Both the position numbers and the translations under genes were made by a program. From Aphanomyces cochlioides (taxonomy: Eukaryota; Oomycota; Saprolegniomycetes; Saprolegniales; Verrucalvaceae): a stretch of 64,000 bases of DNA. Each line of letters starts with the position of its first letter. The first letter of the stretch is position 1. Shown one piece after another: positions 28,001-54,853 of this stretch. The stretch is from the NCBI GenBank assembly GCA_019828595.1, contig JAHQRK010000010.1, positions 1,364,001 through 1,428,000 of the forward strand. Reading direction: 5' to 3'. The notes under the pieces are model-generated. The model saw nothing but the letters and a program-made list of their open reading frames with translations, was not told the DNA's origin and did no database searches.

Positions 28001-28126
28001 CGGTAGACCGGATAGGTCGTGAGCGGTGTGAGATGGAGAACAGTTTCGGTCGATATTGTCCACACAAATGTCAGAATCACGCATGTTGTTGGTTGGAGAA
28101 GGAGGTGTGTTGGGTAGCACAGGCAT
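22085..28126 (-). pseudogene. VLIG-like GTPase / NF-X1-like / vWA protein, copy 1 (two stop codons)
   Basis: One reading frame of 2,014 codons is interrupted only by TGA at 25247-25249 and an ochre codon at 24740-24742; the other copies have a sense codon at each site. The order is: N-terminal region, GTPase domain (P-loop GKQSTGKS, then ARCTDG and DFEGLGS), Cys/His-rich region with repeated H-x-C-x3-C units (about 23060-23950) and a C-terminal vWA domain with MIDAS residues DASRSM and FSDG. The ATG used in copies 2 and 3 has become GTA here (about 27908), so the frame only appears to start upstream at 28126. It is the most diverged long copy. Only three point changes separate it from a readable gene, so decay is recent, or one of the calls reflects sequencing error. 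Confidence 0.85.
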
Positions 28127-28779: not shown

Positions 28780-29265
28780 CATATTTTGTTTTGAGATACT
28801 TCATGGTCAATGGGAGGTAATCCTTCGACTTCTCTTATCGTTGCTGTACACGGCTATTTCAGAAGGGGGTAAAATATGATGACCTTGTGTCTATCGTAGC
28901 TTAAAGCCATCGAGGAACGATTGAGTTTGAAGCGAAGCGACTTACATTGATGTTGAATACTCTGATTACCGTCCGAGGCGGTGGTACAAATTGACATGGG
29001 CTTGTGCTGTGCAATTGAAGTGCTGGCGCGAAATCGTCACAATACGGACTCTCCAATCTTGCTCTTCTTCTCAGGCCCCAATTCATATGGAATGGTGAGC
29101 TCCATGCAAACCAAATCGTTGCCTCACATGAGCGTCACAACTTGCCAAGTTACTTTGTTGGCTTTGGCGATGTGAGCAAAGTGCATGTGGGGAGAGCTTG
29201 GTGACGCGTCTCGATGGAAGTTTTCACAATTCAGTGTCAGAGATGGACCTCTTCAATGTCTTTTG
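28780..29265 (+). pseudogene. Relic of a vWA domain of the same family
   Basis: Translated pieces in shifting frames match the vWA domain of the long copies: GLCCAIEVLARNRHNTDSPI followed by LLFFSG (from 28981), RLDGSFHNSVSEMDLFNVF (about 29205-29265) and, upstream, an IEFEAK ... LNTLITVRGGGTN equivalent. Frameshifts and stops are numerous. It is on the opposite strand to copy 1. Confidence 0.65.
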
Positions 29266-32733: not shown

Positions 32734-32736
32734 TTA

Positions 32737-32887: not shown

Positions 32888-32890
32888 TAA

Positions 32891-33353: not shown

Positions 33354-36300
33354 ATGTCGGCGAGACTTCGCGGAGTTGCTTGCAGCTACGAGACGTTCAC
33401 GTGTTTTCATTTGTTACGACTCCTCATCGACAATGACGAAGACACTATGGTGTTCCAACCCACAGTCGTCGACAGTGAACTCTTTCGCTTTCTCCGTGCT
33501 TTGTCAGTACTCCCCAAAACCGACTTGGAATCCTCAACCACAACGGAGAACTCGCAATCTGATCTATTGGGACAATTCTTGAATGGCCAAGCGTTTCCTT
33601 CGTCGGGACGATCAATGGACGTGATGGGTTATTTTGGAAGGCAATCTGCTGTGGAGCAGCAACTAACAACCGATGGGTGGTGGCTGCAGAACCTCTCCGA
33701 CTATATCAAGAATGAGGAAGAAGGAGTCTATGGTCTTATTCAAGGCAGCGTTGACGAAGACGGTGGCGACTTACGCGTCGTGTTGTTTGGATGGTTGACG
33801 AACGAGTCGTTTGAAGGCGTGTTCCTCCGTGAACGAGCCACGTATGTGCTTCGTTTCTTGACGACTTTGACATCAAACGTGGTCTGTTGCTTGGCACCTC
33901 AAGATATTATTCGCCCAAGTCCGGCTCCGAACTCTGAAGCATCGACGTTGCCGAAAAAGTACTCGGTCTCATTTTCAATCAAAACGGCCAAAGTCGAAGA
34001 GGAACAAGTGCGTTGTGAATTCAAGTATGAAGCTGGTTGGGGCGATGAATTTGATGATGGTGAGCTGGTTCCTGGGTCAGTGGTAGCATTGGCGGTGGTC
34101 AAGTCTGACCGACATGTTATCACGGAGCGTTCGAGTCAATATTTGACCTCTGTGGATGGCTTTGGAAAGTGGTTGATTGAAATAATGAAGACGCATGCTG
34201 TTGACGTACAATGTCAAATTCCAAGACCCATGATGGCTAGTGCTCTCAAGCTCAAGAACGAATTTCCAAAGGACGTGCTAGACAGCATTACTGAAGATGT
34301 CATTCGAAACCAAATACGTGTTGATGCCGACTTGAAAGTGAAGAATGACCTGGCCTTGATGCAAAAGCGCTGTGAAGAGAATGGAGCAATCGCATTTTTT
34401 GTCAGAATTGATGGTCCACAGCAAGAAAACTTGGCGAATGATGCATTGCAGAAAGACTTGAAAATGCTGAAAGGATGGCATATGTCTGTTGGGTCAGCTC
34501 TGCAACCAGCACTTGCCGATTTTCGCTCGACGATTGACATCACTGTCAACAAAGGGTATGAACCCATCGCGACAAAAAACGACTTTGAAACGAAGGGCGT
34601 ATGGGGCGGTGTGTGGCAATGGTTGACAACTGCAAAACAAATTTCATTTCCTTATTTGGCAAAGGGTGAGCTGGTGAAACAAGCATTGGACATCTCTGCA
34701 AACGAGTTGAAAAATCATTATCAAAGTTGGTGTCGTCTACTCAATACTGCCATGAAAAACGACAAAATTATTGCATGGCGAGTGAATCATGAATGCAATG
34801 CTATGATGAAACCAGTGAACCTGAAATCTATGTTGAGCAGCCGCAAAGAAGAAGTCGTGCGCAATTCCTTTGCCGTCATGATGGATAATCACACCAAGGC
34901 TCAACCTGATGGTCATCTCGTCACTGAAGTGGTCAATTGCTATAGCCATAATATTGTCTTCAGGAAGCAAGAAATTAAATAGGACGCGGAGATTGTCAGT
35001 GTGTATTGCGTATCAAAGACGTTTCCAGAGTTACGAGGCAGCTTCACGCTACCAAAGAAGGCCAAATTGGTGCACATATCGCTTGTTGAAGATGTTTGTG
35101 TAATTGTATATCTCCAAGAACGGGTTGCAAACATGGAAACTCATGTGCGAGCGTACAAGAAGTCGAATTGGACAAAATCCATCGCAACAAAACACTTCCC
35201 GAAGGAAACAAACCTTTGCGACTTTGATCCAAGCCATCGCCTTTTGGCTATGCTCCACTCGGATAATCTCGTCGACTTGTATGCTTTCAACGAATCATAC
35301 AAGGTTCTCGAACGTGTGCAAACAATCAATCTTCAGTTCCTGCGTGTGCAAAGTCCTTTTTATCGCATGGTGATCTTCGGCGGCGACAACCATGGTCTTG
35401 CTCTTATCGACCAAGAAGGAAGACTTCAGTCGTCCTTTCTTCGCTCCAAGCAAGTCTCTAAATTGGTTGAGCATCTGGTCATCATTGGCAATACAAAGCT
35501 GGTGAAAGCACAAGGCGGTACCATGCTGATGCTGCTGACTATGGACAAAATGGAACAAAGTTCTTACACTGTCAAGGTTCAGACTGTTCTCACAGCAGAC
35601 AATACCATGCTGCCCGAAGCGACTTTGAAAATGCCAGTGGTGATGGAATGGTCTCGCTGCTCTGTTTCATGCGTGGGCGAGAATTTAATCTGCTTTGACT
35701 CAGTGTCTACAAGAGTGCGTATGTGGAATCTGCACATTGCAACTGGAAAGATGGCGTGGCAGCTTCAAGGATCGCAAACCACAAAAGGTGAATCGGTTCC
35801 ATTGGAAGACCACCCCATGTGGTCGCTCTTTCACTTATATGAAAAGTTTCCAGTGCAAAGTTTGGTGGCCACATCGACTGGCAGTAATCTTGTGTCTGGC
35901 CGATTGCAAATACATGTATCCGGTATTGCGAACAAAGCCGCCGTGACAAATCTTCTGACGCTCGTCATGCATAAACTCCAAGGCTTGAACAAGAACTTGT
36001 CGCCGCTGAACTTGGAAGACGACTTGCAAGTCCATACCTCTGGCTCGGTATCCTGGTGTGGCTCGACGGTTGCGATGGCTCCATGGGTGTTGGAACTCGT
36101 CGGCTTTGTTCCAGTGCAAATTTGTCGTGCCAGAGATAACCAACTGGTCTTGCTAAACAACGGCCACGAGGAAAATTCAATGGGAACAGAAGCGCATGAA
36201 GTTGCCAAGTCGATTTGGTTTGGTCCGATCTCGGGTGTTTTACAGCACTGGAGTGGACCTGTGGTTGTCTTGACGTCGATGGGAAAGCAGTCGACGGGGA

Positions 36301-39226
36301 AGAGCTACTACTTGAATCACTTGACGGGTAGTTCGTTTGCTATTTCTGGCGCTCGATGCACGGATGGTGTGTGGCTCACTGTCCGCCTCATGGGAAATTG
36401 TCTGCTGGTTGTGTTGGACTTTGAAGGCTTGGGATCATTTGAGCGTTCGGCTCAAGAAGATACATTTTTGTCTGTGCTGAATGCCGCTGTCTCACGACTG
36501 ACGGTGTTTCGCATCGAGATGCGTTTCGACAAGGACATTGATACCATGTTTTCCAAGTTTCAGCAAGGCGTGTCGTTGTTGAAAGGCGATCCCCGATTAT
36601 TCCAAGGCAAGTTGTATTTGAATGCCAAAGATGTTAATCCCAATGATCAAAACACCGTCATCCATGAGTTCCAAACCAAGCTTGAAGCCATCTTGAACGA
36701 GAATCGAGGCGACAACTTTGTGACGGCGATGTATGGCGGGAATATGGAAATCACTTGCTGTCCTCCACTTGGCAATGTTGGCTATTATGAAGCTCTGGGC
36801 GAAGTATTGGAATTGCTGGAAAAGTCGAGAGACATGGTGTCATATGCGAACGGCTTAGATTTTTACGACTGCTTGACGATGGTGTTGTCCAAAATCAGCC
36901 TTTTGGATTGGACTTGCATGGAGGACAATTTGAAAGAGCGTTTGGCTATTGAACAGCGAAGTCAAATCCGTACAGCTCTTCACTACGGCAAGTTGGCCCA
37001 CTGCAGACTTGTGGACGGTGAGCCCGAAGAGTATGTTGAGAAGTGGACGACGTTGTTTACTGATACGGATATGATGGCGAATTTACCAGACGATGCGTCG
37101 ATGGATTTTGAGCTTGATTTGAATTTGAAGACGGAAGAGCTGCTACAAGAGTCGAAGATTATCTTGACGAAATTCTTCAAAGTATTCCTCGGGTTCGGCG
37201 AAGAACCACGAAGCCCATCAATAGAGGCTCAGTTCGACAATTTGTGGACATTTTTGTTGTGGCGCCGTGAGCATCGAGTGCGTCTGTGGGTCGCAAGTTT
37301 GCCTTCCGTCGATCGTGAAGAAATGGACGACTTGGACGCTTGCGTCTTAAAGCAGAAGCAATATCTGCGCCGATGTCAACTTACCTGCGCAAATTGCAAG
37401 TTAGGTTGCTTTGAGTGTTTTCTTCATGACTCTAGTGTTCCTCATGACTGCGGTACAAACCACAAATGCGTTAATCCATGTGCATATTGTGCTGCTTTGG
37501 GAGACAAGGAGATGTGCGCATCGGCGGCTGGTCACTCTGGACCTTGCAATTGCGGCTTGAAAGATCATACATGCAATGAACCTTGCGATATGATGGAAGC
37601 CTCGAATTGCGAGAAGACTTGCAGCTTGGAAGTTGGACACGAAGAGCCTCATTCGTGTGGTGTGAAGCTCCATTGCTGTGGTCAACCCTGTCAGGCCGTC
37701 GAATGCCGTGGCTCGTGCACGTTACCGTTTGAAAATCCCCACGACCGCCACATGTGTGGTGCCAACCGTTGCCAGCAGACTTGCGTGATGCCCGACTGTG
37801 GTAACACTTGTGCCGCACCCGATCATTTTCATCCTGTGGGCGCCAACCATTTATGCGGTCAACCCCACCGTTGCACGGCTGAGTGCAAAGAAGACGGCAT
37901 TTGCAAGATCAAAGTGCACTTGGAAAAAATTACCGAGACATTGCAGGAAAGCGTGACACGTTTGCCTTTACTCGGCAAGAAATGAATGGATCGAAGCGCA
38001 AATGCAGTGAAGTCTTGTCAGCCAAAACGACGTCACATTTTGATAACCACCGATGCAACAGCACAATTCACTACTGTGACGCTCGTTGCCCCTGCTGCCA
38101 ATACTTTTGTGACAAGGAATATGGCCACGATGGCTTGCATCGAACATCCCATGGCAATATGAAGGACACTTACTTTGTGTCGGACTCATAGGCCGTTGAC
38201 ATTGGCGACCGAAAGTATACTGCTGGAGAGCAAGGCGTTGCGGAGATGTGTCCATTTTTCTGTTCCAAGATGGGCCGAGGACATGTTCACTTTATGCCAT
38301 GCCAGCACAAAGCCAACACTTGTGTCTATACAACGTCGGATGGACGCAAGCATTGCAATCTCAAATTGGAGCCAAATCCGACAATGCCGATGGACGAAGT
38401 TCTCCACGAAACGTATTGGAAGACATTGGGTTGGGAGGATCCAGTCACCAGCGCGGTGGAGAAGGCATCGTTCAAGTTGTGCCCATTCAAGTGTGATGCG
38501 TCGGATCACTCTGAAGACTCTCCATCGTATTGCATTTTGGACGCTTGGCATGATATTGTGGACAAGTCTGACCCACGAGGACAAAAAGCCGGCCAGTCTG
38601 TCGTCCAAGGCCATTTGCTTGCTTGCCAACATTATGCCGCTCTTGGGAAGGCTCATCATATATTTGTCTTGGATGCGTCAGGATCGATGAAGGGAGATCC
38701 TTGGACTACACTTCTGGATGCTGTAAACGGCTATCTCCAAGAACAAGTGGCCAAAAAAGGTGCCGACTGTGGTGATCTTGTATCGGTTGTGACTTTCAGT
38801 TCGAGTGGCTTGATTGTGTTTGAAGTGCAACCTATTGAGTCGAAACTTACCACTGAGATTCCATTTGAAGGCACTGGAACTAACTTTGTCATCGGATTGC
38901 ATTGTGCGATTGAAGTGCTGTCGCGCAATCGTCACGATAAGTACACTCCAGTGTTGCTTTTCTTCTCGGATGGTTATACCAACACAAATAACAGCGGCGA
39001 ATTCCTCGCCGACTACATTGTTGCCAGCTTTGAGCGATTCAATCTTTCGACCTACTTGGTTGGCTTTGGCGACATGAATTATGTTCGTTTGGAGAAATTG
39101 GCCGCACGGCTTCATGGAAGTTTCCATAATGCTGTGTCAGATATTGATCTATTGGACACGTTCAAATCGATCTCCGTGTCTGTGCACTTACGCTCGGGTC
39201 TTGTAGCCAAGACAGCAGCCGCGTAG
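33354..39226 (+). pseudogene. VLIG-like GTPase / NF-X1-like / vWA protein, copy 2 (three lesions)
   Basis: Starts with the family's MSARLRGVACSYETF. Interrupted by TAG at 34980-34982, by loss of one base near 37942 (the frame of ITET continues as AGKRDTFAFTRQEM) and by TAG at 38189-38191. Otherwise every domain is present: P-loop GKQSTGKS (about 36285-36310), DFEGLGS (about 36418), Cys/His-rich region (about 37370-38520), and vWA with DASGSM (about 38668) and FSDGYTN. The G-domain segment 36204-36622 is base-for-base identical to 51830-52248 of copy 4, while the flanks differ. This copy may still be transcribed but cannot give the full protein by normal translation. Confidence 0.85.
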
Positions 39227-39984: not shown

Positions 39985-41300
39985 ATGTTTTTCTCCTTGT
40001 GGCTGATGTGCTCTATTGCATGGGACAAGATGTATATGAATGAGAAAGGTGGCAATCCGAATGACCAAGAGTCAGTAGGTTTTGAATTTCAAACAAACTT
40101 GAAAGAACGAATGCAATGCCGAAAATTTGTGATAACCATGGAGGTAATGTCGAAATCACTTGCTATCCTACGCTTCGTAGTGTCGATTATTATGAAGATC
40201 TGAACGAGGGATTAGAAATTTTGAACGAGTCTCGAGATGATGCGTCGTGATTTTTTTACGATAGTTGTGTCCGTTGATTGGACTTTTAGAAAGACAACAT
40301 TAGGAGAGACTAGCCATTGAATTGCGACATCGAATACGAATGGGCCTGTGATATCCGTTAGCGACAAGTCAAAAGACTAGCGGATGATATCTTCGCGTCC
40401 ACATGGAATCTATAGTCATAGATGACATTACTACAAAGAAGAAAGAAAACGTAGTTCACTTAGGCTCATGACATTCCACAACGAAGCTACATGATTGAAT
40501 ACTTCACAGTTCAAAATTTCAAATTTTAAGGAAAACTGGATGCGACATATTGTGAGTCATACAACCACAGTGCTGCGATCTGAAGCGCGATTTGCATCAA
40601 CCAAGGATACCAAGCAATTGGCAGTCATATTTTGAGCTGATTGTGTTGTGGAACGCGACTTCAAAGCTTGTTACGAGTGTCTTTCGAGGATCTAATTATC
40701 CATTTCTCCAAAAAAATATCATTCCAAAGGTTTATCTTGAGTTTTGTATGTGAATGCTGCCTTGCTCAACTTTGGCGCATTTGGGAATAAGAATGATCTA
40801 AAAATACCTCAGAATTCGTTCAAGGATTATATTTTACAAGTTTCAAGCCAATCAGACAAACTTGAAGTATCTCATTTTTAACCACTCGCATCTTTTCCAA
40901 TCAAAGTTTTTGTCAACAGTTTGACCCACAATGTGTCACTGACCCAAAATGTGTCGCTAACTGATATGGAAAGTAGGTTGACTGTGATTGTGGACGGAGA
41001 GCCAGAAGAGTTGTTGAGAAGAGGAACATTTGTTCGATAATACTGAAATGCTGGACGATTTACCAGAAGAGGCTTCTTTGGCCTTTCATCTCGACGTGGA
41101 TCTCATGCCAAGCGGTAGAGGGCCAGGGTTGGTGCGCGTTGCCGTTCGAGAATGGACATGACCTCCACATGTGTGGTTTCACCCGTTGCCTGCAGACTTG
41201 TGTGAATCTCTACCTTCGCAATAGCATGCGCATCTTGCCAATGAGCTAAGCGATGCTGCTTCTAAAACCACGTCACACAATCTATTATGAAGGCCAGGTG
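39985..41300 (+). pseudogene. Highly decayed relic of a GTPase/vWA family copy
   Basis: Scattered matches in family order: KMYMNEKGGNPNDQESVGFEF (about 40030-40095, equivalent to LYLNAKDVNPNDQ), SRDDAS, FYDSC and the IELRIQIRMGL equivalent up to 40350, VDGEPEE (about 40995), then WCALPFENGHDLHMCG (about 41130-41180). Stops and frameshifts are everywhere. The relic is split by the insertion at 40355-40961. Confidence 0.6.
40355..40961. mobile_element. TIR insertion of about 607 bp inside the relic
   Basis: The left side has GTTAGCGACA two bases in; the right side ends TGTCGCTAAC, its exact reverse complement. TGATAT flanks both sides (40349-40354 and 40962-40967), a likely 6-bp target duplication. 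The relic's homology to the family stops on one side and resumes on the other. No coding capacity seen. Confidence 0.5.
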
Positions 41301-42075: not shown

Positions 42076-42686
42076 TTAGTGGTTTACTGCGACGAGCCCA
42101 GATTGCAAATGAACCGACACTGAAATTGACTTGAATTTTTCTAAAAGGTCAATGCCTGACACTGCATTGTGAAAGCTACCGCGTAGTCGAACAGCTAACT
42201 TCTCCAAGCAGACAAAGTCCATCTCGCCAAAGCCAACCAAGTAGCTCGCCAAGTTGTGTCGCTCAAAATTCGTCACAATGTGATCAGCCAAGTAGACTCC
42301 ACTGTCTTCCGTATTTGGAAATCCGTCCGAGAAGAAGAGCAGCACTGGAGAATAGACGTCGTGAGGGTTGCGAGACAGCACTTCAATCGCACAACGCAAG
42401 CCTGTGTCGTAGTCCGTGCTTGGTCCTTCTTGAAATGGAATCTCCTTGTTGACTTTGCTCACGAGAGGCGCTGCTTCATACTCAATGACTCCATACGAAC
42501 TGAAAGTAATCACAGACACAATATCATCGCACTCGTTCCCTTTCTTGTTGACTTGTTCTTGCAAATATCCATGAAAGGCATCAGTTAGCTCGTCCCAAGG
42601 AGAGCCCCACATTGACGCCGATGCATCCAAAACAAAGATATGGTGCGTCTTCCCACGGGTAGCGTAATGGCGGCATGCGAATAAAT
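42076..42686 (-). pseudogene. Truncated vWA-domain fragment of the family
   Basis: From 42686 the minus strand reads HLFACRHYATRGKTHHIF then VLDASASM (MIDAS), FSDGFPN and a normal C-terminal tail ending at 42076. The reading frame is intact, but everything upstream of the vWA domain is missing. The breakpoint coincides with the outer end of the large inverted repeat, so the duplication cut through an older copy. Confidence 0.75.
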
Positions 42687-45600
42687 GAGCTTTAAAGCCT
42701 AGCGTACATTTCGACGAAGACGTATAAAGCCTTTACCGATGACGACGGACAAGTACGAGGTTGTGCCTTCCTGCTTGATGAAAGAAATTAGCAGTGAATT
42801 CCATATATTGTCACAAAAAGTAAAAATTCAAACTAAGGCAAAGCGCCCCAAGACAAAAACTACGTCGCTGCTGTCTTGGCAACAAGTCCCGAGCGTAAGT
42901 GCACAGACACGGAGATTGACTTGAACGTTTCCAGCAGGTCAATACCCGACACAGCATTGTGGAAACTTCCATGGAGACGCGTGGCCAATTTCTCCAAACA
43001 CACATAATTCATATTGCCAAAGCCGACCAAGTAGCTCGAAAGATTGAATCGCTCGAAGTTGGCAACAATGTGGTCGGCGAGAAATTCGCCGCTGCCCGTC
43101 GTGTTGGAATACCCATCCGAGAAGAAAAGCAACACTGGGGAAAACATGTCGTGGCGATTACGCGACAGCACTTCAATTGCACAACGCAATCCCGTGTCAA
43201 AGTCAGTTCCAGCGCCTTGGAAGGGAATTTGAGTGTTGATCTTCGACGCAATAGGTTGCGCTTCAAACACAATCAAGCCACTCGAACTGAAAGTCACAAC
43301 TGACACAAGATCGCCACAGTCGACACCCTTCTTGTTGACTTGCTCTTGCAAATATCCATGCACGGCATCAGTGAGGGCAGCCCACGGGGGGCCAGACATC
43401 GATCCAGAAGCATCCAAAACAAAAATATGATGCGTCTTCCCGCGAGCGGCGTAATGCTTGCAGGCAAACAAATGGCCTTGGACGACAGAATGGTTGGCTT
43501 GTTGTCCTCGTGGGTCAGTCTTGTCCACAATATCATGCCAAGCGTCCAAAATGCAATACGATGGAGAGTCTTCAGAGTGATCCGACGCATCACACTTGAA
43601 TGGACACAGCTTGAACGATGCCTTCTCCACCGCGCTGGTGACTGGATCCTCCCAACCCAATGTCTTCCAATACGTTTCGTGAAGCACTTCGTCCATCGGC
43701 ATTGTCGGATTTGGCTCCAATTTGAGATTGCAATGCTTGCGTCCATCCGACGTTGTATAGACACAAGTGTTGGCTTTGTGCTTGCATGGCATGAAGTGAA
43801 CATGTCCACGACCCATCTTGGAGCAGAAAAATGGACACATCTCCGCAACGCCTTGCTCTCCAGCGGTATACTTACGGTCGCCAATATCCACCGCTTGCGA
43901 GTCCGACACAAAGTACGTGTCCTTCATGTTGCCATGGGATGTTCGATGCAGGTCAGCGTGGCCATAAGCCTTGTCACAGAAGTATTGGCAACAAGGACAG
44001 CGAACGTCGCAGTAGTGAATCGCGCTGTTGCATCGATGGTCGTCTGGATGCGACGTTGTATCGGCCGCGACAGCTTCACTGCACTTGCGCTTCGTGCCGT
44101 TCATTTCTTGTCGGGTGAAGTCAAAAGTGCCTCGCTTGCCAGCAAAAGTTTCTGTGATTTTTTCCAAGTGCACTTTGATCTCGCAAATGCCGTCTTCCTT
44201 GCATTCAGCCGTGCAACGGTGGGGTTGACCGCACAAGTGGTTGGCGCCCACAGGATGAAAATGATCGGGTGCGGCACAAGTGTTACCACAGTCGGGCATC
44301 ACGCAAGTCTGCTGGCAACGGTTGGCACCACACATGTGGCGGTCGTGGGGATTTTCAAACGGTAACGTGCACGAGCCACGGCATTCGACGGCCTGACAGG
44401 GTTGACCACAGCAATGGAGCTTCACACCACACGAATGAGGCTCTTCGTGTCCAACTTCCAAGCTGCAAGTCTTCTCGCAATTCGAGGCTTCCATCATATC
44501 GCAAGGTTCATTGCAAGTATGATCTTTCAAACCGCAATTGCAAGGCCCAGAGTGACCAGCCACCGATGCGCACATCTCCTTATCTCCAAGGGATGCACAA
44601 TGCACACATGGATTGACGCACTTGTGGTTGGTCCCGCAGTCATGAGGAACAGTTGCATCGTGTAGGAAACACTCAAAGCAACCCAACTTACAGTGTGCGC
44701 AGGTATGTTGGCATCGGCGGAGGTGTTGCTTCAGTTTCAAAACGCAAGCATCCAAGTCATCCATTTCTTCTCGACCGACGGAAGGCAAACTTGAGACCCA
44801 CAGACGCACTCTGTGCTCACGACGCCACAACAAAAATGTCCACAAATTGTCGAATTGGGCCTCAATCGAAGGACTTCGCGGTTCGTCCACATACTCAAGA
44901 TACGTCTTGAAGAATTTCATCAAAATAATTTTCGACTCTTGTAGCAGCTTTTCCGTCTTCAAATTCAAATCCAGCTCAAAATCCATCGACGCATCTTCTG
45001 GTAAACTCTGCACGATATCAGTATCGGCAAACAACGTCTTCCACTTCTCAACGTACTCTTCGGGCTCACCATCCACAAGTCCGCAGTGAGCCAACTTGCC
45101 GTAGCGAAGAGCTGTACGGATTTGACTTCGCAGTTCAATGGCCAAGCGCTCCTTCAAATGTCCTCCATGCAAGTCCAATCCAAAAGACTGATCTTGGACA
45201 ACACCATCGTCAAGCAGTCGTAGAAGTCCAAACCGTTCGCATACGGCACCATGTCTCTCGACTTTTCCAGCAATTCCAATCCTTCGCCTAGCGCTTCGTA
45301 ATAGCCAACATTGCCAAGTGGAGGACAGCAAGTGATCTCGACATTGCCACCATACATCGCTGTCACAAAGTTGTCGGCTCGATTCTCGTTCAAGATGGCT
45401 TCAAGCTTGGTTTGGAACTCATGGATGACGGTGTTTTGATCATTGGGATTGACATCTTTGGCGTTCAAATACAACTTGCCTTGGAATAATCGGGGATCGC
45501 CTTTCAACAACGACACGCCTTGCTGAAACTTGGAAAACATGGTATCAATGTCCTTGTCGAAACGCATCTCGATGCGAAACACCGTCAGTCGTGAGACAGC

Positions 45601-46728
45601 GGCATTCAGCACAGACAAAAATGTATCTTCTTGAGCCGAACGCTCAAATGATCCCAAGCCTTCAAAGTCCAACACAACCAGCAGACAATTTCCCATGAGG
45701 CGGACAGTGAGCCACACACCATCCGTGCATCGAGCGCCAGAAATAGCAAACGAACTACCCGTCAAGTGATTCAAGTAGTAGCTCTTCCCCGTCGACTGCT
45801 TTCCCATCGACGTCAAGACAACCACAGGTCCACTCCAGTGCTGTAAAACACCCGAGATCGGACCAAACCAAATCGACTTGGCCACTTCATGCGCTTCCGT
45901 TCCAAATGAACTCTCCTCTTGGCCGTTCTTCAGCAAGACCAGTTGGTTATCTCTGGCACGGCAAATTTGCACTGGAACAAAGCCGACGAGTTCCAACACC
46001 CATGGAGCCATCGACACCGTCGAGCCACACCAGGATACCGAGCCAGAGGTATGGACTTGCAAGTCGTCTTCCAAATTGAGCGGCGACAAGTTCTTGTTCA
46101 AGCCTTGGAGTTTGTGCATGACGAACGTCAAGAGATCTGTCATGACGGCTTTGTTCGCCATGCCAGATACGTGCAATTGCAGTCGACCAGACACCAGAGC
46201 ATTGTCTATCGACTTGGCCACCAGACTTTGCACTGGAAACTTTTCAAACAAGTGAAAGAGAGACCACATCGGATGGGCTTCCAAAACATTCGATTCGCCT
46301 TTCGTGGTTTGCGATCCTTGGAGTTGCCACGCCATCTTTCCAGTTGCAATATGAAGCGTCCACATGCGAACTCGGGTCGACTCTGGATCAAAGCAGACTA
46401 AAGTCTCCCCAACGCATGAAACAGAGCATCGAGACCATTCCATCACCACTGGTATTTTCAATGCCGCTTCAGGCAGCATGGTATTGTCAGCTGTGAGAAT
46501 GGTCTGAACTTTGACAGTGTAAGAACTTTCGTGCATATCGTCCATCGTCAGCAGCATGAGCATGGCACCACCTTGCACTTTCACCACCTTTGTATTGCCA
46601 ATGATGACCAAGTGTTCAACCAGCTTGGAAACTTGCTTGGATCGAATAAAAGACGACTGGAGCCGTCCCTCGTGGTCAATCACAGCAAGGCCATGGTTGT
46701 CACCACCGAAGATCACCATACGACTGAA
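42687..46728 (-). repeat. Left arm of a large inverted repeat (about 4.04 kb)
   Basis: Reverse complement of 50984-55026. Even the accidental ORFs in all frames are the same in both arms. The only difference I could place is a 1-bp deletion near 45158. The arm includes about 170 bp of 3' flank beyond the coding end. Confidence 0.9.
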
Positions 46729-48738
46729 AGGACTCTGCACACGCAGGATCTGTAAATTGACAGATTGGACGCGTTCGAGAACTTTGTACGATTCGTTGAA
46801 TGCGTACAAGTCGACAACATTGACAGAGTGGAGCATAGCCAAGAGACGATGACTCGGATCAAAGTCGCAAAGGCTTGTTTCCTTTGGGAAGTTCTTCGTC
46901 ACGACAGGCTTCGTCCAGCTTGACTTCTTGTAGGCTCGTACTTGAGTTTCCATGGTAGCGACTCGTTCTTGAAGATAAACAAGCAGACAAACGTCTTCGA
47001 CCAGAGAAATGTGCAGCACTTTAGCCTTCTTTGGCAACGTAACGCGGCCTCGTAACTCTGGGTTTGACGCCTTGGTTGTGGAATAAATACTGACAATCTC
47101 CGCATTGTCCTTGACCTCTTGCTTTGTAAAGTTGACACTGTGGCCGTAGACGCTGATCACTTCAGTCACAAGTTGATCAACTGGCAGCCCCTTGTTGTGA
47201 TTGTCCATCATAGCTGCAAAACAATTTCGCACAACTTCTTCCTTGCGGCTAGCCAACACATTCTTCAAGTTGGCTCCTTTCATCATGGCCGCGTGCTCGT
47301 AATTCACTCGCCATGCAATCATATTCTCATTTTTCATTGCAGTATTGAGCAGACGACACCAATTTTGATAATATGTTCTCAACAGGTTGGTCGAGTTGTC
47401 CAACGCTTGTTTCACCAGCTCGTCCTTGGCCAAATACGGAAATAAGACCCGCGTGGTGGACTTCGACAATCTCATAAGATATCCTAGAAGGCCCGTCATC
47501 TGAGATGCATGGCTTCTTTCAATTGGGGCATACGCATTGTTGATAGTGTTGTCAATCGTCGAGCGAAAATCTGAAAGTTTTGGTTGCAGAGCTGACCCAA
47601 CAGACATATGCCATCCTTTCAGCATTTTCAAGTCTTTCTGCAATGCATCATTCGCCATCATTTCTTGTTCTGGACCCTCATTTCTCACATAGAACACGTT
47701 CGCTCCATTCTCTTCGCAGCGCTTTTGCATATTGGCCAGGTCAAGCTTAACTTTCTTCTTGGCTTCTGTAAGCATTTGCTCGCTAATGGCATCTTCAGTA
47801 ATACTGTCCAGCACTTCCTTTGGAAACTCGTCTTTGAGTTTGAGTGCACTAGCCATCATGGGTCTTGGAATTTGACATTGCACGTCAACAGCATGCGTCT
47901 TCATTACTTCAATCAACCACTTGCCGAAGGATTCTGCAGAATTCAAATAATGATTCGAGCGGTTCATAACAACATGGCGGTCAGACTTGACCACCGCCAA
48001 GGCAACCACTGGTCCAGGAACCAGCACACCACCATCGAATGCGTCGCCCCACCCAGCTTCATATTTATATTCACAACGTACTTGCTCCTCTTGGACTTTT
48101 GCGGTTTGAATTGAAAACGACACAGAGTACTTCTTCGACGACGTCATCGCTTCAGAGTCTGGAGCTGGTCGCTTCGTGCGGATAACGTCAGGAGGTGCCA
48201 AGCAACAGACAACGTTCGATGTCAAAGTCGTCAAGAAACGCAGCACATACGTGGCACGTTCACGGAGCAGCGCGCCTTCAAACGACTCGTACGTCAACCA
48301 TCCAAACAAGACAACTCGTACATCACCACCATCTTCATCCATGTTGCCTTGAATGAGACCATAAACTCCTTCTTCCTCGTTTCTAATGTGGTCCGAGAGG
48401 TTTCGTGGCCACCATCCATCCGCCGTCAATTGCTGCTTGACAGCTGACTGCTTTCCAAAGTATGCCATCACTTCCATCGCACGCCCCGACGACAAAAGCA
48501 CTTGGCCATTCAAGTATTGCCCCAATAAATCAGCTTCCGCGTTCTCCATTGTGGCTGAGGATTGCACGCGAGCTTTGGGAAGAACTGTCAACGCCCGAAG
48601 GAAGCGAAATAGCTCATTCTCGACCACAGTTGGCTGGAAGACCATAGCGCCTTCGTCGTTGGCGACAAAAAGCTGCAACAAATGATAGCACTTGAACGTC
48701 TCGTAGCTGCACGTAACTCCGCGAAGTCTTGTCGACAT
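42860..48738 (-). pseudogene. VLIG-like GTPase / NF-X1-like / vWA protein, copy 3 (one frameshift)
   Basis: Canonical start MSTRLRGVTCSYETFKCYHL at 48738. The frame is open for 1,194 codons to 45154, where loss of one A near 45158 (GGACATTTG here, GGACAATTTG in copy 4) shifts it to a stop. The rest continues in the next frame to 42860, with the Cys/His-rich region and a vWA domain (DASGSM). Without that base the protein would have about 1,960 residues. The C-terminal two thirds is almost identical to copy 4 and the N-terminal third is clearly diverged. A truncated product with the G domain but no zinc-binding or vWA parts remains possible. Confidence 0.88.
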
Positions 48739-48974
48739 GGCTTTACTTTTTCAAGTCTGAGGAGCTCAAGTGAAGGAGCAAACCCCCCTCCAACGGTGTC
48801 TTGTCAACACTGGACCGTTTATTCCAACTGTGAGAGCAATGCAAGCACTCGTCCCATCAAGGTCCTGTCAAGCTGGTCGGTCAATAAACCTCACATCCAA
48901 CGCAACTGTCGTGACAAATTTAGCAACCGTGGCATGGCAGTCGTCGTGGCAACTCGTCGCAGTCGGGAAATGTC
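48739..48974. promoter_or_regulatory. Divergent promoter between copies 3 and 4
   Basis: About 236 bp separate the ancestral start codons of the head-to-head copies (48736-48738 minus and 48975-48977 plus). The copy 3 side carries the conserved leader TTGAAAAAGTAAAGCCATG. No TATCCGGAT site is seen. Confidence 0.45.
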
Positions 48975-51900
48975 ATGACGGCAAATCTTTGCGGAGTTTC
49001 CTGCAGCTACGAGAGGCTATACAATGTTATCATTTACTGCGTCTATTGATCCACAATGAGGACTTCGTCACGGTATTCCAGCCCACAGTGGTCGACAGTG
49101 AGCTCTTTCGTTTCCTCCGCGCGTTGTCGGTTCTTCCGAACGACCATGTGCAAGCATCCACCACTACCGAGAACTTGCAAGCTGATCGGTTGGAGCAGTA
49201 TTTGAATGATGAAACTCTCATTGCGTCAGGAGGACGAGCGATGGACGTCATGGCTTACTTTGGAAAGCAACTTGCAGTCGAGCAGCAGTTGACGACCGAC
49301 GGATGGTGGCCACATAATCTCTCTTCCCATATCAAAATGGAGGAAGAAGGCGTGTACGCATTGACTCTGAACAACATGGAGGAAAGCAATGGCGTCTTGC
49401 GGGTTGTCTTGTTTGGATGGCTCACAACCGAATCGTTTGAAGGCGTGTTGCTCCGTGAACGTGCCACGTATGTGCTTCGATTCTTGACGACTTTGACGTC
49501 CAACGTGGTCTGTTGCTTGGCACCTTGTGATGTTATTCGCACGAAGCGACCAGCCCCAGACTCTGAAGCAATGACGTCGTCGAAGAAATATTCGGTGTCG
49601 TTTTCAATCCAGACGACCAAAGTCGAGGAGGAGCAAGTCTGCTGTGTATTGAGCTATGATGCTGGATGGGGCGAAGCAGTCGAAGGCGGCGAGCTGGTTC
49701 CAAGTCCAATGGTATCGCTGGCAGTAGTGAAATCGGACCGACACATTGTCATGGAGCGCTCTAGTCGATATGTCAAGACTGCCAACGAGTTTGCCAAATG
49801 GTTGATCAAGACAATGCAGACGTATGCAATTGATGTGCAGTGTCAACTTCCAAAATCATGGATGGCTCGAGCTCTCGAAGTCCACGGCCAGTTTCCCCGC
49901 GAGCTCATGGATTCAATGACAGAAGACGCTGTTGTGCGCTGGGTTCAGCTCGACGCAGCAGCGAAAGCTCAACAGGAGATTGACGCAATGTTGACTCGCT
50001 GTGAAGAAAATGCTGCCAAAGTGTTCTACGTTGATGTGGATGGTGTCGAGGAAGAATTGACGGCCAGCAATGCACTCATGTACGACATGCAAGTTCTCCG
50101 TGGGTGGTATTTCAATTTCAGCCAAGTGCCAAACGCTCGCTTGGTCGATTTCGAAGCGCGGATTTATAACCTTGTCAATGACGAGTATGCTCGATTGCAA
50201 AAGACATCTCAAGGATCGGAGAAGAGTGGATGGTTTGGTTGGCTTGGTGGCTGGAAAGAAACGAAAAGAATGAGCTTTCCGTACTTGCTACATGGAGATA
50301 TTGGGCGTGAAGTCTTGGCAAATGTCAGCGTGCAATTAGCAACCGCCTACGAAAAGTGGTGTCAGTTGCTTCGTCAAGCTCTTCACAATGATGTCCTACT
50401 AGAAAGTCGAATGTCGACCATTCAAGCTGCTCTTTTGAAGAATGTCAACATGAAGGAAGCAGTGAAAGGCCAGAAGGACCAAGTTGTTCGAGAATCATTT
50501 ATCTCCATGTTGGCCACTTCGAATGAAGCCGAAACCAGCAGCCTCCAAATGACTTTAACACAAGTCCGAAACAACAACGTGGCATTTTCAATGCAGCACA
50601 TCAAAGAGATGGCGGAGATTGTGACTGTCTACGACTTTGACCAGCGTGCATTGAAGTGCAAAGGACGCATGGTTCTGCCTCCTCAGACTAGAATTATCCT
50701 CTTGGCATTTGTCCAAGACATTGCGATAGTCGTATCGACTCAAGTCCAAGCTCGTGCTATTCAGACTCACATGAACGTGTTCAAAAAGTCCAATTTGACG
50801 AAATCCATCACGCATCGCGTCTTCCCGAGAGAAGTAGTTTTGTGTGACTATGGCCCGACGCATCGTCACTTGGCCATGCTTCACTCGGACACATTTGTTG
50901 ACGTTTACGCATTTAATGAAGCGTATAAAGTCTTGGAGCCTGTTTACAGCGTCAATCTGACTATTCTACGTCTACAGAGTCCCTTCAGTCGTATGGTGAT
51001 CTTCGGTGGTGACAACCATGGCCTTGCTGTGATTGACCACGAGGGACGGCTCCAGTCGTCTTTTATTCGATCCAAGCAAGTTTCCAAGCTGGTTGAACAC
51101 TTGGTCATCATTGGCAATACAAAGGTGGTGAAAGTGCAAGGTGGTGCCATGCTCATGCTGCTGACGATGGACGATATGCACGAAAGTTCTTACACTGTCA
51201 AAGTTCAGACCATTCTCACAGCTGACAATACCATGCTGCCTGAAGCGGCATTGAAAATACCAGTGGTGATGGAATGGTCTCGATGCTCTGTTTCATGCGT
51301 TGGGGAGACTTTAGTCTGCTTTGATCCAGAGTCGACCCGAGTTCGCATGTGGACGCTTCATATTGCAACTGGAAAGATGGCGTGGCAACTCCAAGGATCG
51401 CAAACCACGAAAGGCGAATCGAATGTTTTGGAAGCCCATCCGATGTGGTCTCTCTTTCACTTGTTTGAAAAGTTTCCAGTGCAAAGTCTGGTGGCCAAGT
51501 CGATAGACAATGCTCTGGTGTCTGGTCGACTGCAATTGCACGTATCTGGCATGGCGAACAAAGCCGTCATGACAGATCTCTTGACGTTCGTCATGCACAA
51601 ACTCCAAGGCTTGAACAAGAACTTGTCGCCGCTCAATTTGGAAGACGACTTGCAAGTCCATACCTCTGGCTCGGTATCCTGGTGTGGCTCGACGGTGTCG
51701 ATGGCTCCATGGGTGTTGGAACTCGTCGGCTTTGTTCCAGTGCAAATTTGCCGTGCCAGAGATAACCAACTGGTCTTGCTGAAGAACGGCCAAGAGGAGA
51801 GTTCATTTGGAACGGAAGCGCATGAAGTGGCCAAGTCGATTTGGTTTGGTCCGATCTCGGGTGTTTTACAGCACTGGAGTGGACCTGTGGTTGTCTTGAC

Positions 51901-54853
51901 GTCGATGGGAAAGCAGTCGACGGGGAAGAGCTACTACTTGAATCACTTGACGGGTAGTTCGTTTGCTATTTCTGGCGCTCGATGCACGGATGGTGTGTGG
52001 CTCACTGTCCGCCTCATGGGAAATTGTCTGCTGGTTGTGTTGGACTTTGAAGGCTTGGGATCATTTGAGCGTTCGGCTCAAGAAGATACATTTTTGTCTG
52101 TGCTGAATGCCGCTGTCTCACGACTGACGGTGTTTCGCATCGAGATGCGTTTCGACAAGGACATTGATACCATGTTTTCCAAGTTTCAGCAAGGCGTGTC
52201 GTTGTTGAAAGGCGATCCCCGATTATTCCAAGGCAAGTTGTATTTGAACGCCAAAGATGTCAATCCCAATGATCAAAACACCGTCATCCATGAGTTCCAA
52301 ACCAAGCTTGAAGCCATCTTGAACGAGAATCGAGCCGACAACTTTGTGACAGCGATGTATGGTGGCAATGTCGAGATCACTTGCTGTCCTCCACTTGGCA
52401 ATGTTGGCTATTACGAAGCGCTAGGCGAAGGATTGGAATTGCTGGAAAAGTCGAGAGACATGGTGCCGTATGCGAACGGTTTGGACTTCTACGACTGCTT
52501 GACGATGGTGTTGTCCAAGATCAGTCTTTTGGATTGGACTTGCATGGAGGACAATTTGAAGGAGCGCTTGGCCATTGAACTGCGAAGTCAAATCCGTACA
52601 GCTCTTCGCTACGGCAAGTTGGCTCACTGCGGACTTGTGGATGGTGAGCCCGAAGAGTACGTTGAGAAGTGGAAGACGTTGTTTGCCGATACTGATATCG
52701 TGCAGAGTTTACCAGAAGATGCGTCGATGGATTTTGAGCTGGATTTGAATTTGAAGACGGAAAAGCTGCTACAAGAGTCGAAAATTATTTTGATGAAATT
52801 CTTCAAGACGTATCTTGAGTATGTGGACGAACCGCGAAGTCCTTCGATTGAGGCCCAATTCGACAATTTGTGGACATTTTTGTTGTGGCGTCGTGAGCAC
52901 AGAGTGCGTCTGTGGGTCTCAAGTTTGCCTTCCGTCGGTCGAGAAGAAATGGATGACTTGGATGCTTGCGTTTTGAAACTGAAGCAACACCTCCGCCGAT
53001 GCCAACATACCTGCGCACACTGTAAGTTGGGTTGCTTTGAGTGTTTCCTACACGATGCAACTGTTCCTCATGACTGCGGGACCAACCACAAGTGCGTCAA
53101 TCCATGTGTGCATTGTGCATCCCTTGGAGATAAGGAGATGTGCGCATCGGTGGCTGGTCACTCTGGGCCTTGCAATTGCGGTTTGAAAGATCATACTTGC
53201 AATGAACCTTGCGATATGATGGAAGCCTCGAATTGCGAGAAGACTTGCAGCTTGGAAGTTGGACACGAAGAGCCTCATTCGTGTGGTGTGAAGCTCCATT
53301 GCTGTGGTCAACCCTGTCAGGCCGTCGAATGCCGTGGCTCGTGCACGTTACCGTTTGAAAATCCCCACGACCGCCACATGTGTGGTGCCAACCGTTGCCA
53401 GCAGACTTGCGTGATGCCCGACTGTGGTAACACTTGTGCCGCACCCGATCATTTTCATCCTGTGGGCGCCAACCACTTGTGCGGTCAACCCCACCGTTGC
53501 ACGGCTGAATGCAAGGAAGACGGCATTTGCGAGATCAAAGTGCACTTGGAAAAAATCACAGAAACTTTTGCTGGCAAGCGAGGCACTTTTGACTTCACCC
53601 GACAAGAAATGAACGGCACGAAGCGCAAGTGCAGTGAAGCTGTCGCGGCCGATACAACGTCGCATCCAGACGACCATCGATGCAACAGCGCGATTCACTA
53701 CTGCGACGTTCGCTGTCCTTGTTGCCAATACTTCTGTGACAAGGCTTATGGCCACGCTGACCTGCATCGAACATCCCATGGCAACATGAAGGACACGTAC
53801 TTTGTGTCGGACTCGCAAGCGGTGGATATTGGCGACCGTAAGTATACCGCTGGAGAGCAAGGCGTTGCGGAGATGTGTCCATTTTTCTGCTCCAAGATGG
53901 GTCGTGGACATGTTCACTTCATGCCATGCAAGCACAAAGCCAACACTTGTGTCTATACAACGTCGGATGGACGCAAGCATTGCAATCTCAAATTGGAGCC
54001 AAATCCGACAATGCCGATGGACGAAGTGCTTCACGAAACGTATTGGAAGACATTGGGTTGGGAGGATCCAGTCACCAGCGCGGTGGAGAAGGCATCGTTC
54101 AAGCTGTGTCCATTCAAGTGTGATGCGTCGGATCACTCTGAAGACTCTCCATCGTATTGCATTTTGGACGCTTGGCATGATATTGTGGACAAGACTGACC
54201 CACGAGGACAACAAGCCAACCATTCTGTCGTCCAAGGCCATTTGTTTGCCTGCAAGCATTACGCCGCTCGCGGGAAGACGCATCATATTTTTGTTTTGGA
54301 TGCTTCTGGATCGATGTCTGGCCCCCCGTGGGCTGCCCTCACTGATGCCGTGCATGGATATTTGCAAGAGCAAGTCAACAAGAAGGGTGTCGACTGTGGC
54401 GATCTTGTGTCAGTTGTGACTTTCAGTTCGAGTGGCTTGATTGTGTTTGAAGCGCAACCTATTGCGTCGAAGATCAACACTCAAATTCCCTTCCAAGGCG
54501 CTGGAACTGACTTTGACACGGGATTGCGTTGTGCAATTGAAGTGCTGTCGCGTAATCGCCACGACATGTTTTCCCCAGTGTTGCTTTTCTTCTCGGATGG
54601 GTATTCCAACACGACGGGCAGCGGCGAATTTCTCGCCGACCACATTGTTGCCAACTTCGAGCGATTCAATCTTTCGAGCTACTTGGTCGGCTTTGGCAAT
54701 ATGAATTATGTGTGTTTGGAGAAATTGGCCACGCGTCTCCATGGAAGTTTCCACAATGCTGTGTCGGGTATTGACCTGCTGGAAACGTTCAAGTCAATCT
54801 CCGTGTCTGTGCACTTACGCTCGGGACTTGTTGCCAAGACAGCAGCGACGTAG
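48770..54853 (+). CDS. VLIG-like GTPase / NF-X1-like / vWA protein, copy 4 (longest open frame)
   Basis: 2,027 codons without a stop or intron. Parts: N-terminal region (about 85-1000) with a late segment of possible beta-propeller character (RMWTLHIATGKMAWQLQG); G domain (about 1000-1180) with P-loop GKQSTGKS, ARCTDG, DFEGLGS and possibly NAKD; helical linker; Cys/His-rich region (about 1405-1800) with NF-X1-like units such as CGTNHKC and HLCGQPHRCTAEC; vWA domain (about 1835-2010) with MIDAS residues DASGSM, Thr in GTDFDTG and FSDGYSN. The ARCTDG and DFEGL spacing fits VLIG/GBP-type immune GTPases, but the function here is unknown. The family start MTANLCGVSCSYER (48975) is in another frame: two extra bases near 49015 separate it from the main frame, so the first 84 residues are non-homologous. 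The protein may start further in, or this copy too may be damaged. Confidence 0.85.
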   Translation: MKEQTPLQRCLVNTGPFIPTVRAMQALVPSRSCQAGRSINLTSNATVVTNLATVAWQSSWQLVAVGKCHDGKSLRSFLQLREAIQCYHLLRLLIHNEDFVTVFQPTVVDSELFRFLRALSVLPNDHVQASTTTENLQADRLEQYLNDETLIASGGRAMDVMAYFGKQLAVEQQLTTDGWWPHNLSSHIKMEEEGVYALTLNNMEESNGVLRVVLFGWLTTESFEGVLLRERATYVLRFLTTLTSNVVCCLAPCDVIRTKRPAPDSEAMTSSKKYSVSFSIQTTKVEEEQVCCVLSYDAGWGEAVEGGELVPSPMVSLAVVKSDRHIVMERSSRYVKTANEFAKWLIKTMQTYAIDVQCQLPKSWMARALEVHGQFPRELMDSMTEDAVVRWVQLDAAAKAQQEIDAMLTRCEENAAKVFYVDVDGVEEELTASNALMYDMQVLRGWYFNFSQVPNARLVDFEARIYNLVNDEYARLQKTSQGSEKSGWFGWLGGWKETKRMSFPYLLHGDIGREVLANVSVQLATAYEKWCQLLRQALHNDVLLESRMSTIQAALLKNVNMKEAVKGQKDQVVRESFISMLATSNEAETSSLQMTLTQVRNNNVAFSMQHIKEMAEIVTVYDFDQRALKCKGRMVLPPQTRIILLAFVQDIAIVVSTQVQARAIQTHMNVFKKSNLTKSITHRVFPREVVLCDYGPTHRHLAMLHSDTFVDVYAFNEAYKVLEPVYSVNLTILRLQSPFSRMVIFGGDNHGLAVIDHEGRLQSSFIRSKQVSKLVEHLVIIGNTKVVKVQGGAMLMLLTMDDMHESSYTVKVQTILTADNTMLPEAALKIPVVMEWSRCSVSCVGETLVCFDPESTRVRMWTLHIATGKMAWQLQGSQTTKGESNVLEAHPMWSLFHLFEKFPVQSLVAKSIDNALVSGRLQLHVSGMANKAVMTDLLTFVMHKLQGLNKNLSPLNLEDDLQVHTSGSVSWCGSTVSMAPWVLELVGFVPVQICRARDNQLVLLKNGQEESSFGTEAHEVAKSIWFGPISGVLQHWSGPVVVLTSMGKQSTGKSYYLNHLTGSSFAISGARCTDGVWLTVRLMGNCLLVVLDFEGLGSFERSAQEDTFLSVLNAAVSRLTVFRIEMRFDKDIDTMFSKFQQGVSLLKGDPRLFQGKLYLNAKDVNPNDQNTVIHEFQTKLEAILNENRADNFVTAMYGGNVEITCCPPLGNVGYYEALGEGLELLEKSRDMVPYANGLDFYDCLTMVLSKISLLDWTCMEDNLKERLAIELRSQIRTALRYGKLAHCGLVDGEPEEYVEKWKTLFADTDIVQSLPEDASMDFELDLNLKTEKLLQESKIILMKFFKTYLEYVDEPRSPSIEAQFDNLWTFLLWRREHRVRLWVSSLPSVGREEMDDLDACVLKLKQHLRRCQHTCAHCKLGCFECFLHDATVPHDCGTNHKCVNPCVHCASLGDKEMCASVAGHSGPCNCGLKDHTCNEPCDMMEASNCEKTCSLEVGHEEPHSCGVKLHCCGQPCQAVECRGSCTLPFENPHDRHMCGANRCQQTCVMPDCGNTCAAPDHFHPVGANHLCGQPHRCTAECKEDGICEIKVHLEKITETFAGKRGTFDFTRQEMNGTKRKCSEAVAADTTSHPDDHRCNSAIHYCDVRCPCCQYFCDKAYGHADLHRTSHGNMKDTYFVSDSQAVDIGDRKYTAGEQGVAEMCPFFCSKMGRGHVHFMPCKHKANTCVYTTSDGRKHCNLKLEPNPTMPMDEVLHETYWKTLGWEDPVTSAVEKASFKLCPFKCDASDHSEDSPSYCILDAWHDIVDKTDPRGQQANHSVVQGHLFACKHYAARGKTHHIFVLDASGSMSGPPWAALTDAVHGYLQEQVNKKGVDCGDLVSVVTFSSSGLIVFEAQPIASKINTQIPFQGAGTDFDTGLRCAIEVLSRNRHDMFSPVLLFFSDGYSNTTGSGEFLADHIVANFERFNLSSYLVGFGNMNYVCLEKLATRLHGSFHNAVSGIDLLETFKSISVSVHLRSGLVAKTAAT

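What the first reader, a model, noticed from the sequence alone, without database searches (positions are those of the whole stretch)
48770..54853. VLIG-like GTPase fused to NF-X1-like Cys/His repeats and a vWA domain in an oomycete-like genome
Seen: P-loop GKQSTGKS, ARCTDG and DFEGLGS in one domain, then repeated H-x-C-x3-C units, then a vWA domain with a complete MIDAS, all in one 2,027-codon frame. Known: ARCT-type and D-x-E-G motifs with this spacing are typical of the very large inducible GTPases and related GBPs, which in animals act in cell-autonomous immunity; NF-X1-type repeats bind nucleic acid or mediate ubiquitin transfer; vWA MIDAS domains bind ligands. Inference: this is a self-contained sensor/effector protein family, multiplied and diversified in this locus, possibly in intracellular defence. 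I am not aware of a described role for this architecture.
Basis: partly seen in the sequence, partly recalled or inferred. Interest (0 to 1): 0.88.

Follow-up and report, generated by a model that had tools for sequence, protein, structure and literature searches.

The report
Ancient GTPase with giant zinc domain
This water-mould gene encodes a giant protein, with relatives in many branches of the eukaryote tree, that joins a GTP-driven switch related to animal immune GTPases to an extraordinarily conserved domain that looks able to hold about seventeen zinc ions, and it may be an old intracellular surveillance machine.

Summary
The 2,027-codon frame at 48770-54853 is the only full-length uninterrupted copy (gene D) of a family with four copies in this window and at least two elsewhere in the Aphanomyces cochlioides AC1031 genome. 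Models and profiles show an N-terminal domain, a beta-propeller with a fast-diverging helical insert, a GBP/atlastin-type G domain, a 430-residue Cys/His module and a vWA domain with complete MIDAS. The Cys-rich part does not test as NF-X1. It has 69 near-invariant Cys/His, enough for about 17 zinc ions (inferred). Ten proteins outside the defining alignment keep 65-69 of them; one paralogue with wrecked GTPase and MIDAS motifs keeps 69 of 69. Hits name oomycetes, dinoflagellates, a foraminiferan, algae, land plants (no flowering plant listed), an amoebozoan, fungi, an acoel and a sponge. Eight paper searches for it listed no description (capped lists, open-licence papers). VLIG kinship is plausible but below Pfam's cut-off. 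Function is inferred: a GTP-assembled scaffold, possibly ubiquitin-linked and defensive.

The parts
48770..54853 (+). gene D: complete open frame, 2,027 codons plus stop; only full-length match without a stop inside in the genome search
49001..49579 (+). N-terminal alpha/beta domain (residues 78-270)
   Evidence: AlphaFold model of residues 60-1010, mean pLDDT 85.1; boundaries mine
49580..49780 (+). first strands of the beta-propeller (residues 271-337)
   Evidence: VIA rows span model residues 228-811
49781..50530 (+). helical insert in the propeller (residues 338-587), the fastest-diverging part
   Evidence: 30-38% identity between window copies; 26% mean identity over 10 Saprolegniales rows
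50531..51409 (+). rest of the beta-propeller (residues 588-880)
51728..52537 (+). GBP/atlastin-type G domain (residues 987-1256)
51908..51931 (+). P-loop GKQSTGKS (residues 1047-1054)
51980..51994 (+). RCTDG switch I motif (residues 1071-1075)
52043..52054 (+). DFEG switch II motif (residues 1092-1095)
52253..52258 (+). K-D pair (residues 1162-1163), the probable (R/K)D-type G4 motif
   Evidence: K 52/57, D 57/57 rows; assignment as G4 is inference
52538..52981 (+). helical middle domain (residues 1257-1404)
   Evidence: GBP1 and GBP2 alignments extend to model residues 576-588
52982..54271 (+). poly-Cys/His (zinc) module, residues 1405-1834, 69 conserved Cys/His
   Evidence: no Pfam match
54272..54808 (+). 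vWA domain with MIDAS (residues 1835-2013)
42860..48738 (-). copy C, head to head with D, broken by a frameshift; annotated publicly as AC1031_002095
33354..39226 (+). copy B, interrupted by two stops and a frameshift
22085..28126 (-). copy A, same frame throughout but with two in-frame stops
42088..42693 (-). vWA remnant (D residues 1822-2022, 76%)
28759..29263 (+). older vWA remnant (36-38% over its larger pieces), stops inside
40027..41207 (+). scattered G-domain and Cys-module fragments, probably of a lost copy

Best explanation
Gene D encodes a member of an ancient, apparently uncharacterised eukaryotic family of about 2,000-residue proteins. Supported by sequence and predicted fold: N-terminal domain, beta-propeller with a rapidly diverging helical insert, GBP/atlastin-class GTPase with helical middle domain, a module with 69 conserved Cys/His, and a vWA domain with MIDAS. 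Inferred mechanism: the propeller and its variable insert recognise a target; GTP binding makes the G domains pair, as in GBPs and atlastins, so that molecules assemble on the target; the zinc module is the rigid working surface that binds partners or substrates, and the vWA domain docks a partner through its metal site. Some relatives add RING or B-box fingers, which points to ubiquitin tagging as an output. Copies with dead G domain and broken MIDAS may work as co-assembling regulators. Inferred role: intracellular surveillance or defence.
Against: No expression, localisation, biochemistry or infection data. No excess of amino-acid-changing substitution was seen (dN/dS 0.30 in the insert for D against C; the 18 other defined values 0.07-0.50), so an arms race is not shown. 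D itself has no RING and none was apparent on reading the sequence downstream. RNF112's E3 and GTPase activities were found to be unrelated (passages of PMC12012479), so a shared RING need not couple to GTP. Zinc binding rests on sequence only. All other full-length copies found in this genome contain a stop or frameshift (introns not considered).
Confidence: 0.45

Rival explanations
1. A housekeeping scaffold or ubiquitin-ligase platform (protein quality control or trafficking), not immunity. The GTPase times assembly and the zinc module binds cellular clients.
For: Module ligands are kept from water mould to acoel and sponge; six of the seven groups with two or more rows form single clades, as with vertical inheritance; low dN/dS; RING/B-box additions.
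Against: Patchy distribution, with no flowering plant or vertebrate named among the 120 of 162 hits listed for a Ginkgo query; copy expansion and decay in this genome; fast-diverging insert. A core housekeeping gene would rarely be lost so often (inference).
Confidence: 0.3
2. An atlastin/Sey1-like membrane remodelling GTPase.
For: Fold matches to atlastin and Sey1; K-D G4-like pair.
Against: No transmembrane hairpin was noticed in the models, but no transmembrane prediction was run; the domains after the G domain are a zinc module and a vWA; a paralogue without a working G domain keeps the zinc module.
Confidence: 0.1
3. A true VLIG/URGCP orthologue group, so already a known family seen in unusual organisms.
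For: URGCP_GTPase is the best-scoring G-domain Pfam model for D and for all 13 other full-length relatives with intact G motifs that I scanned; the precomputed lists attach PF25683 to most members; source names include 'VLIG-type G domain-containing'; the chytrid P-loop is GLQSTGKS (its likeness to VLIG is recalled).
Against: All hmmscan scores are below the curated 55 bits (best 41.7); no row named VLIG or URGCP from a vertebrate appeared in the listed hits of three searches, though list, length and word limits weaken this.
Confidence: 0.25
4. D is one survivor of a decaying, possibly unexpressed cluster, and the open frame reflects recent copying with C.
For: A, B and C are interrupted; D and C are nearly identical over 4,184 nt.
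Against: Purifying selection between copies (16 of 19 defined dN/dS values are 0.07-0.24); proteins of about 1,900-2,200 residues with the same motifs in other genera.
Confidence: 0.15

Closest known systems
Guanylate-binding proteins (GBP1, GBP2, GBP5)
   Same: G-domain fold, DxEG, (R/K)D-type G4, helical domain after the G domain
   Different: No Arg in the P-loop (GKQSTGKS against GLYRTGKS of this genome's own GBPs); ends in zinc module and vWA. This genome also has five GBP-model stretches scoring 89-242 bits; D scores 20.8 and 24.1
VLIG / URGCP very large GTPases
   Same: Best-scoring Pfam model of D's G domain; similar size and RCT-G motif (recalled for VLIG)
   Different: Score below cut-off; vWA and zinc module are not known to me in VLIGs (recalled, not tested)
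RNF112 (neurolastin)
   Same: Atlastin/GBP-like GTPase fused to RING; Foldseek 2e-10 (passages of PMC12012479)
   Different: RING is N-terminal and the protein much smaller (passages); no propeller, zinc module or vWA (recalled)
NF-X1 / ZNFX1 Cys-rich repeats
   Same: Tandem H-x-C-x3-C units (likeness recalled)
   Different: No Pfam match, no NF-X1 pattern; the more regular units here read H-x-C-x3-C-x(4-8)-C-x3-C-x(4-8)-H-x(1-5)-H-x-C, matched by two units in full and one without the first H
Mx-like dynamins of early eukaryotes (PMC11789081)
   Same: Precedent for an immune dynamin-superfamily clade spread over the eukaryotic supergroups (passages read)
   Different: Other branch of the superfamily; the words guanylate and VLIG do not occur in that paper's main text

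Membership tests
GB1/RHD3-type (GBP/atlastin) GTPases | G-domain fold of the GBP/atlastin class | tested here: met
GB1/RHD3-type (GBP/atlastin) GTPases | P-loop, DxEG and (R/K)D motifs | tested here: met
   P-loop G, K and S and DFEG invariant in all rows with a letter (57-58); K 52/57, D 57/57; reading KD as G4 is inference
GBP proper | Arginine in the P-loop acting as arginine finger | tested here: not met
   Ser at that position in 58/58 rows of A1; Thr in acoel P0160 and sponge P0190; Arg in the GBPs L009 and L010 of the same genome; role from PMC12012479 passages
GBP proper | Pfam GBP score over 21.1 bits | tested here: inconclusive
   20.8 bits, 24.1 bits in the genome search; other members 16.5-28.9 bits where listed
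VLIG / URGCP | Pfam URGCP_GTPase score over 55 bits | tested here: not met
   D 31.2 bits, 34.9 in the genome search, other members at most 41.7; but the precomputed newer version lists the family for most members
VLIG / URGCP | G domain branching with animal VLIG/URGCP in a tree | not tested
   no animal VLIG, URGCP or GBP sequence was obtained
VLIG / URGCP | Interferon or infection inducibility | not testable with these tools
   no expression data
NF-X1 zinc finger proteins | NF-X1 repeat profile or pattern | tested here: not met
   0 Pfam families at E<=10 (HMMER filters drop most weak matches); 0 matches of the recalled pattern
vWA domain proteins | vWA fold and complete MIDAS (DxSxS, T, D) | tested here: met
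E3 ubiquitin ligases with RING | RING finger in the same protein | tested here: not met
   none in D; present in P0024 and P0090

The most novel reading that the evidence does not exclude
The 430-residue Cys/His module is an undescribed zinc domain of about 17 metal ions that dates to near the last common ancestor of eukaryotes. Coupled to a GBP-class GTPase, it founds an ancient, VLIG-like family of cell-autonomous defence proteins that was lost in flowering plants and vertebrates and runs with catalytically dead partner copies.
Probability: 0.33. Interest if true: 0.88.

Novelty: new variant of a known kind. Interest (0 to 1): 0.72.

Why it matters
If the reading holds, large immune-type GTPases with a complex sensor/effector architecture existed long before interferon and persist in conifers, mosses, water moulds and algae. 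The zinc module would be among the most metal-dense conserved single domains known to me (recalled, not surveyed), and its survival in a copy that lost both catalytic sites makes it the probable functional core and a direct experimental target.

Tried and rejected
NF-X1 identity of the Cys-rich repeats was rejected. Prokaryotic or viral origin: pattern scans of bacterial/archaeal genome contigs (52 pattern hits, 0 confirmed) and viral contigs (24, 0 confirmed) found no relative; only two short peptide patterns were used in each, so this is a limited test. PADLOC gave nothing of weight (three proteins: no family for D or P0154, a weak TerY match in the vWA of P0101). A third protein search with a G-domain profile, meant to reach GBP and URGCP by a length window, returned 108 rows, all at E<=4.3e-23; those with names and scores look like family members or fragments, but I did not check them one by one, and candidates were capped by shared words, so the absence of GBP and URGCP there is weak. 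A first tree (64 rows, quick method) lacked 7 of the 70 homologues I listed for it, because my P-loop pattern missed them (four fungi, Riccia, two Cryptomeria); one search uses 35 chosen rows and brings in three of those fungi, Riccia, one of those Cryptomeria and Reticulomyxa. In one search the comparison D against C2 is unreliable, because about 57 codons of C2 lie in the wrong frame.

Papers, as seen: PMC9005921 and PMC12489281 (term searches only: no mention of von Willebrand in either; PMC9005921 none of oomycete, very large or RING; PMC12489281 none of VLIG, moss or gymnosperm); PMC8565484 and PMC12012479 (passages); PMC11789081 (passages); PMC7159879 (term search, nothing). The others were seen in search listings only.
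Full report
WHAT IS THERE. The genome is Aphanomyces cochlioides AC1031: public protein AC1031_002095 (P0001) begins with the same residues as copy C of this window, and its contig length of 2,710,298 equals that of contig C2, on which the window lies at 1364001-1428000. P0005, AC1031_014074, likewise sits on a contig of 781,934 bases, the length of C25. The GTG start is doubtful, because homology to other members and copies starts near residue 67-82.

THE LOCUS. Four copies lie in the window: A 22085-28126 (-), B 33354-39226 (+), C 42860-48738 (-) and D. C and D stand head to head and share 2,473 nt at 100%, and 98.9% over 4,184 nt from about codon 692 of D into the 3' flank; upstream the longest match is at 75%. 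This sharp edge points to recent gene conversion or a segmental copy (inference). In the whole-genome search D is the only full-length match with no stop inside; A has two, B has two plus a frameshift, C has a frameshift (the search ignores introns, so some stops could lie in introns, and its counts are lower bounds). Two further paralogues lie elsewhere, L011 (C2:2345662-2351421) and L012 (C25), each with a stop or frame break. Remnants lie at 42088-42693, 28759-29263 and 40027-41207.

WHICH GTPASE. Pfam URGCP_GTPase is the best-scoring G-domain family for D (31.2 bits), but below its 55-bit cut-off; RHD3 and GBP score lower. It is also the best-scoring G-domain family for each of 13 other full-length relatives scanned by hmmscan (P0077, P0089, P0101, P0095, P0024, P0154, P0160, P0141, P0092, P0131, P0190, P0144, P0090), and none reaches that cut-off, the best being 41.7 bits; in acoel P0160 the margin over RHD3 is small (24.5 against 22.3 bits). 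The precomputed lists nevertheless attach a newer version of that family to most members, so the VLIG link is plausible and unsettled. The same genome also holds five GBP-model stretches at 89-242 bits. One of these, L009, has GLYRTGKS, RCTRG and DTEG and ends in CTIQ, which looks like a prenylation box (reading as CaaX recalled). The RCT-G motif therefore does not mark VLIGs. D-type proteins have Ser in place of the P-loop Arg (58/58 rows; Thr in two others), so catalysis probably differs from GBPs, perhaps dynamin-like with a monovalent cation (inference from RNF112 passages, PMC12012479).

THE ZINC MODULE. In the 58-row alignment (D's piece and 57 homologues chosen from the 120 listed), residues 1405-1834 give 424 usable columns. 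Of these, 99 are conserved at 90% or more, and 69 of the 99 are Cys or His (41 Cys, 28 His). I then tested ten proteins not in that alignment. Kept ligands against kept other positions: paralogue L011 69/69 against 157/341; P0005 69/69 against 262/349; A. euteiches P0006 69/69 against 251/345; amoebozoan P0141 69/69 against 104/351; acoel P0160 69/69 against 89/353; sponge P0190 68/68 against 73/333; fungi P0154 66/69 against 74/350 and P0189 65/67 against 96/344; dinoflagellate P0153 66/69 against 91/348; P0187 65/69 against 97/340. Four ligands per ion would give about 17 zinc ions (inference). L011 has lost the P-loop, RCTDG and the DxSxS of the MIDAS, and its DFEG is cut to DFE, yet it keeps a 1,940-codon open frame and all 69 ligands. 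P0005 and P0006 also have a ruined P-loop and switch motifs, with the same P-loop change in two species. The module is therefore probably the functional core, and non-catalytic members look maintained. It matches no Pfam family at E<=10, and no PDB chain shown by the A1 profile search (60 of 63 rows at E<=0.1) has its best stretch there.

DISTRIBUTION. Searches from D (129 hits, 120 listed), Ginkgo (162, 120 listed) and a G-domain profile (108 listed) name oomycetes, dinoflagellates, the foraminiferan Reticulomyxa (taxonomy), Galdieria, liverworts, a moss, Selaginella, ferns, conifers, Stereomyxa (taxonomy), Glomeromycota, a chytrid, the acoel Convolutriloba and the sponge Sycon. Ginkgo, Cyanophora and Mesostigma are read from record prefixes (recalled). 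Single records can be contaminants: the Sycon protein lies on a contig of 15,000 bases, and the Stereomyxa one is a transcriptome record. Of the listed hits none is named as a flowering plant or a vertebrate; many rows carry no name. In a careful tree of 35 chosen rows, oomycetes, plants, fungi, red algae, Mesostigma and dinoflagellates each form one clade with 100/100 support; metazoans do not (two changes, 0% of bootstrap trees with one), with Sycon on a long branch, and the deep order is unresolved. This fits old vertical descent with many losses; ancient transfer is not excluded.

VARIATION. Between D and the other window copies the helical insert is 30-38% identical, against 82-100% for the G domain and 81-95% for the zinc module where compared. 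Across 10 Saprolegniales rows, copy C included, mean identity is 26% in the insert against 73% in the G domain and 62% in the zinc module. dN/dS is 0.30 in the insert for D against C, undefined there for D against B and A (dS saturated), and 0.07-0.50 in the 18 other defined comparisons. So the insert is fast-changing but not shown to be under positive selection.

ADDED DOMAINS. Pythium P0024 has a RING after the vWA (residues 2050-2097); P0089 starts with B-boxes; P0090 has B-boxes and a RING; Mesostigma P0092 carries three AAA ATPase stretches after the vWA. Gain of RING and B-box fingers in different places suggests a ubiquitin output in those lineages (inference).

MECHANISM AND VERDICT. 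Anatomy is strongly supported (about 0.95 for the GBP-class G domain, about 0.9 for a real poly-zinc module, my estimates). The chain target recognition by propeller and insert, GTP-driven assembly, zinc module as working surface, MIDAS docking, ubiquitin output in RING-bearing kin is inferred. A defence role is the reading I favour, at about 0.4-0.45, over housekeeping at 0.3. Of ten paper searches, eight were aimed at this architecture or its kin and two at other things (the species; RNF112). None of the papers listed by the eight is, by its listing, about this architecture, but three of them were capped lists (20 of 50, 25 of 1,506 and 25 of 140 papers), and papers outside the open-licence library were not searched.

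Noticed in passing
L011 (genome contig C2:2345000-2352500): A paralogue about 44% identical to D that lost P-loop, RCTDG and MIDAS DxSxS (DFEG cut to DFE) but keeps a 1,940-codon open frame and 69 of 69 zinc-ligand positions.
   Followed up: partly
L012 (C25:156500-163500) and proteins P0005-P0012: A second pseudo-GTPase line: the P-loop is GEQSTETS in A. cochlioides P0005 and in the A. euteiches proteins checked (P0006, P0007, P0012 of P0006-P0012).
   Followed up: partly
29671-32888: Probable DNA transposon: 155-nt inverted ends at 99% around an ORF with a weak DDE_Tnp_4 match (29987-30913), plus a 215-nt hairpin at 32273-32736.
   Followed up: no
L009 (C45) and L010 (C21): Ordinary GBP-type genes in an oomycete, L009 ending in a CaaX-like CTIQ; GBP-model hits over the cut-off also on contigs C23, C8, C12 and C4.
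   Followed up: partly
1072-1887: CCCH/C2H2 zinc-finger protein ORF with two CCCH fingers.
   Followed up: no
P0092 and P0145 (Mesostigma): The same architecture with AAA ATPase domains; positions seen for P0092 only (three AAA stretches after the vWA, RuvB/CbxX-like by my reading).
   Followed up: no
   Followed up: no
P0001 against window copy C: The public gene model of copy C lacks 18 residues present in D just where C carries its frameshift, so an artificial intron is likely.
   Followed up: partly
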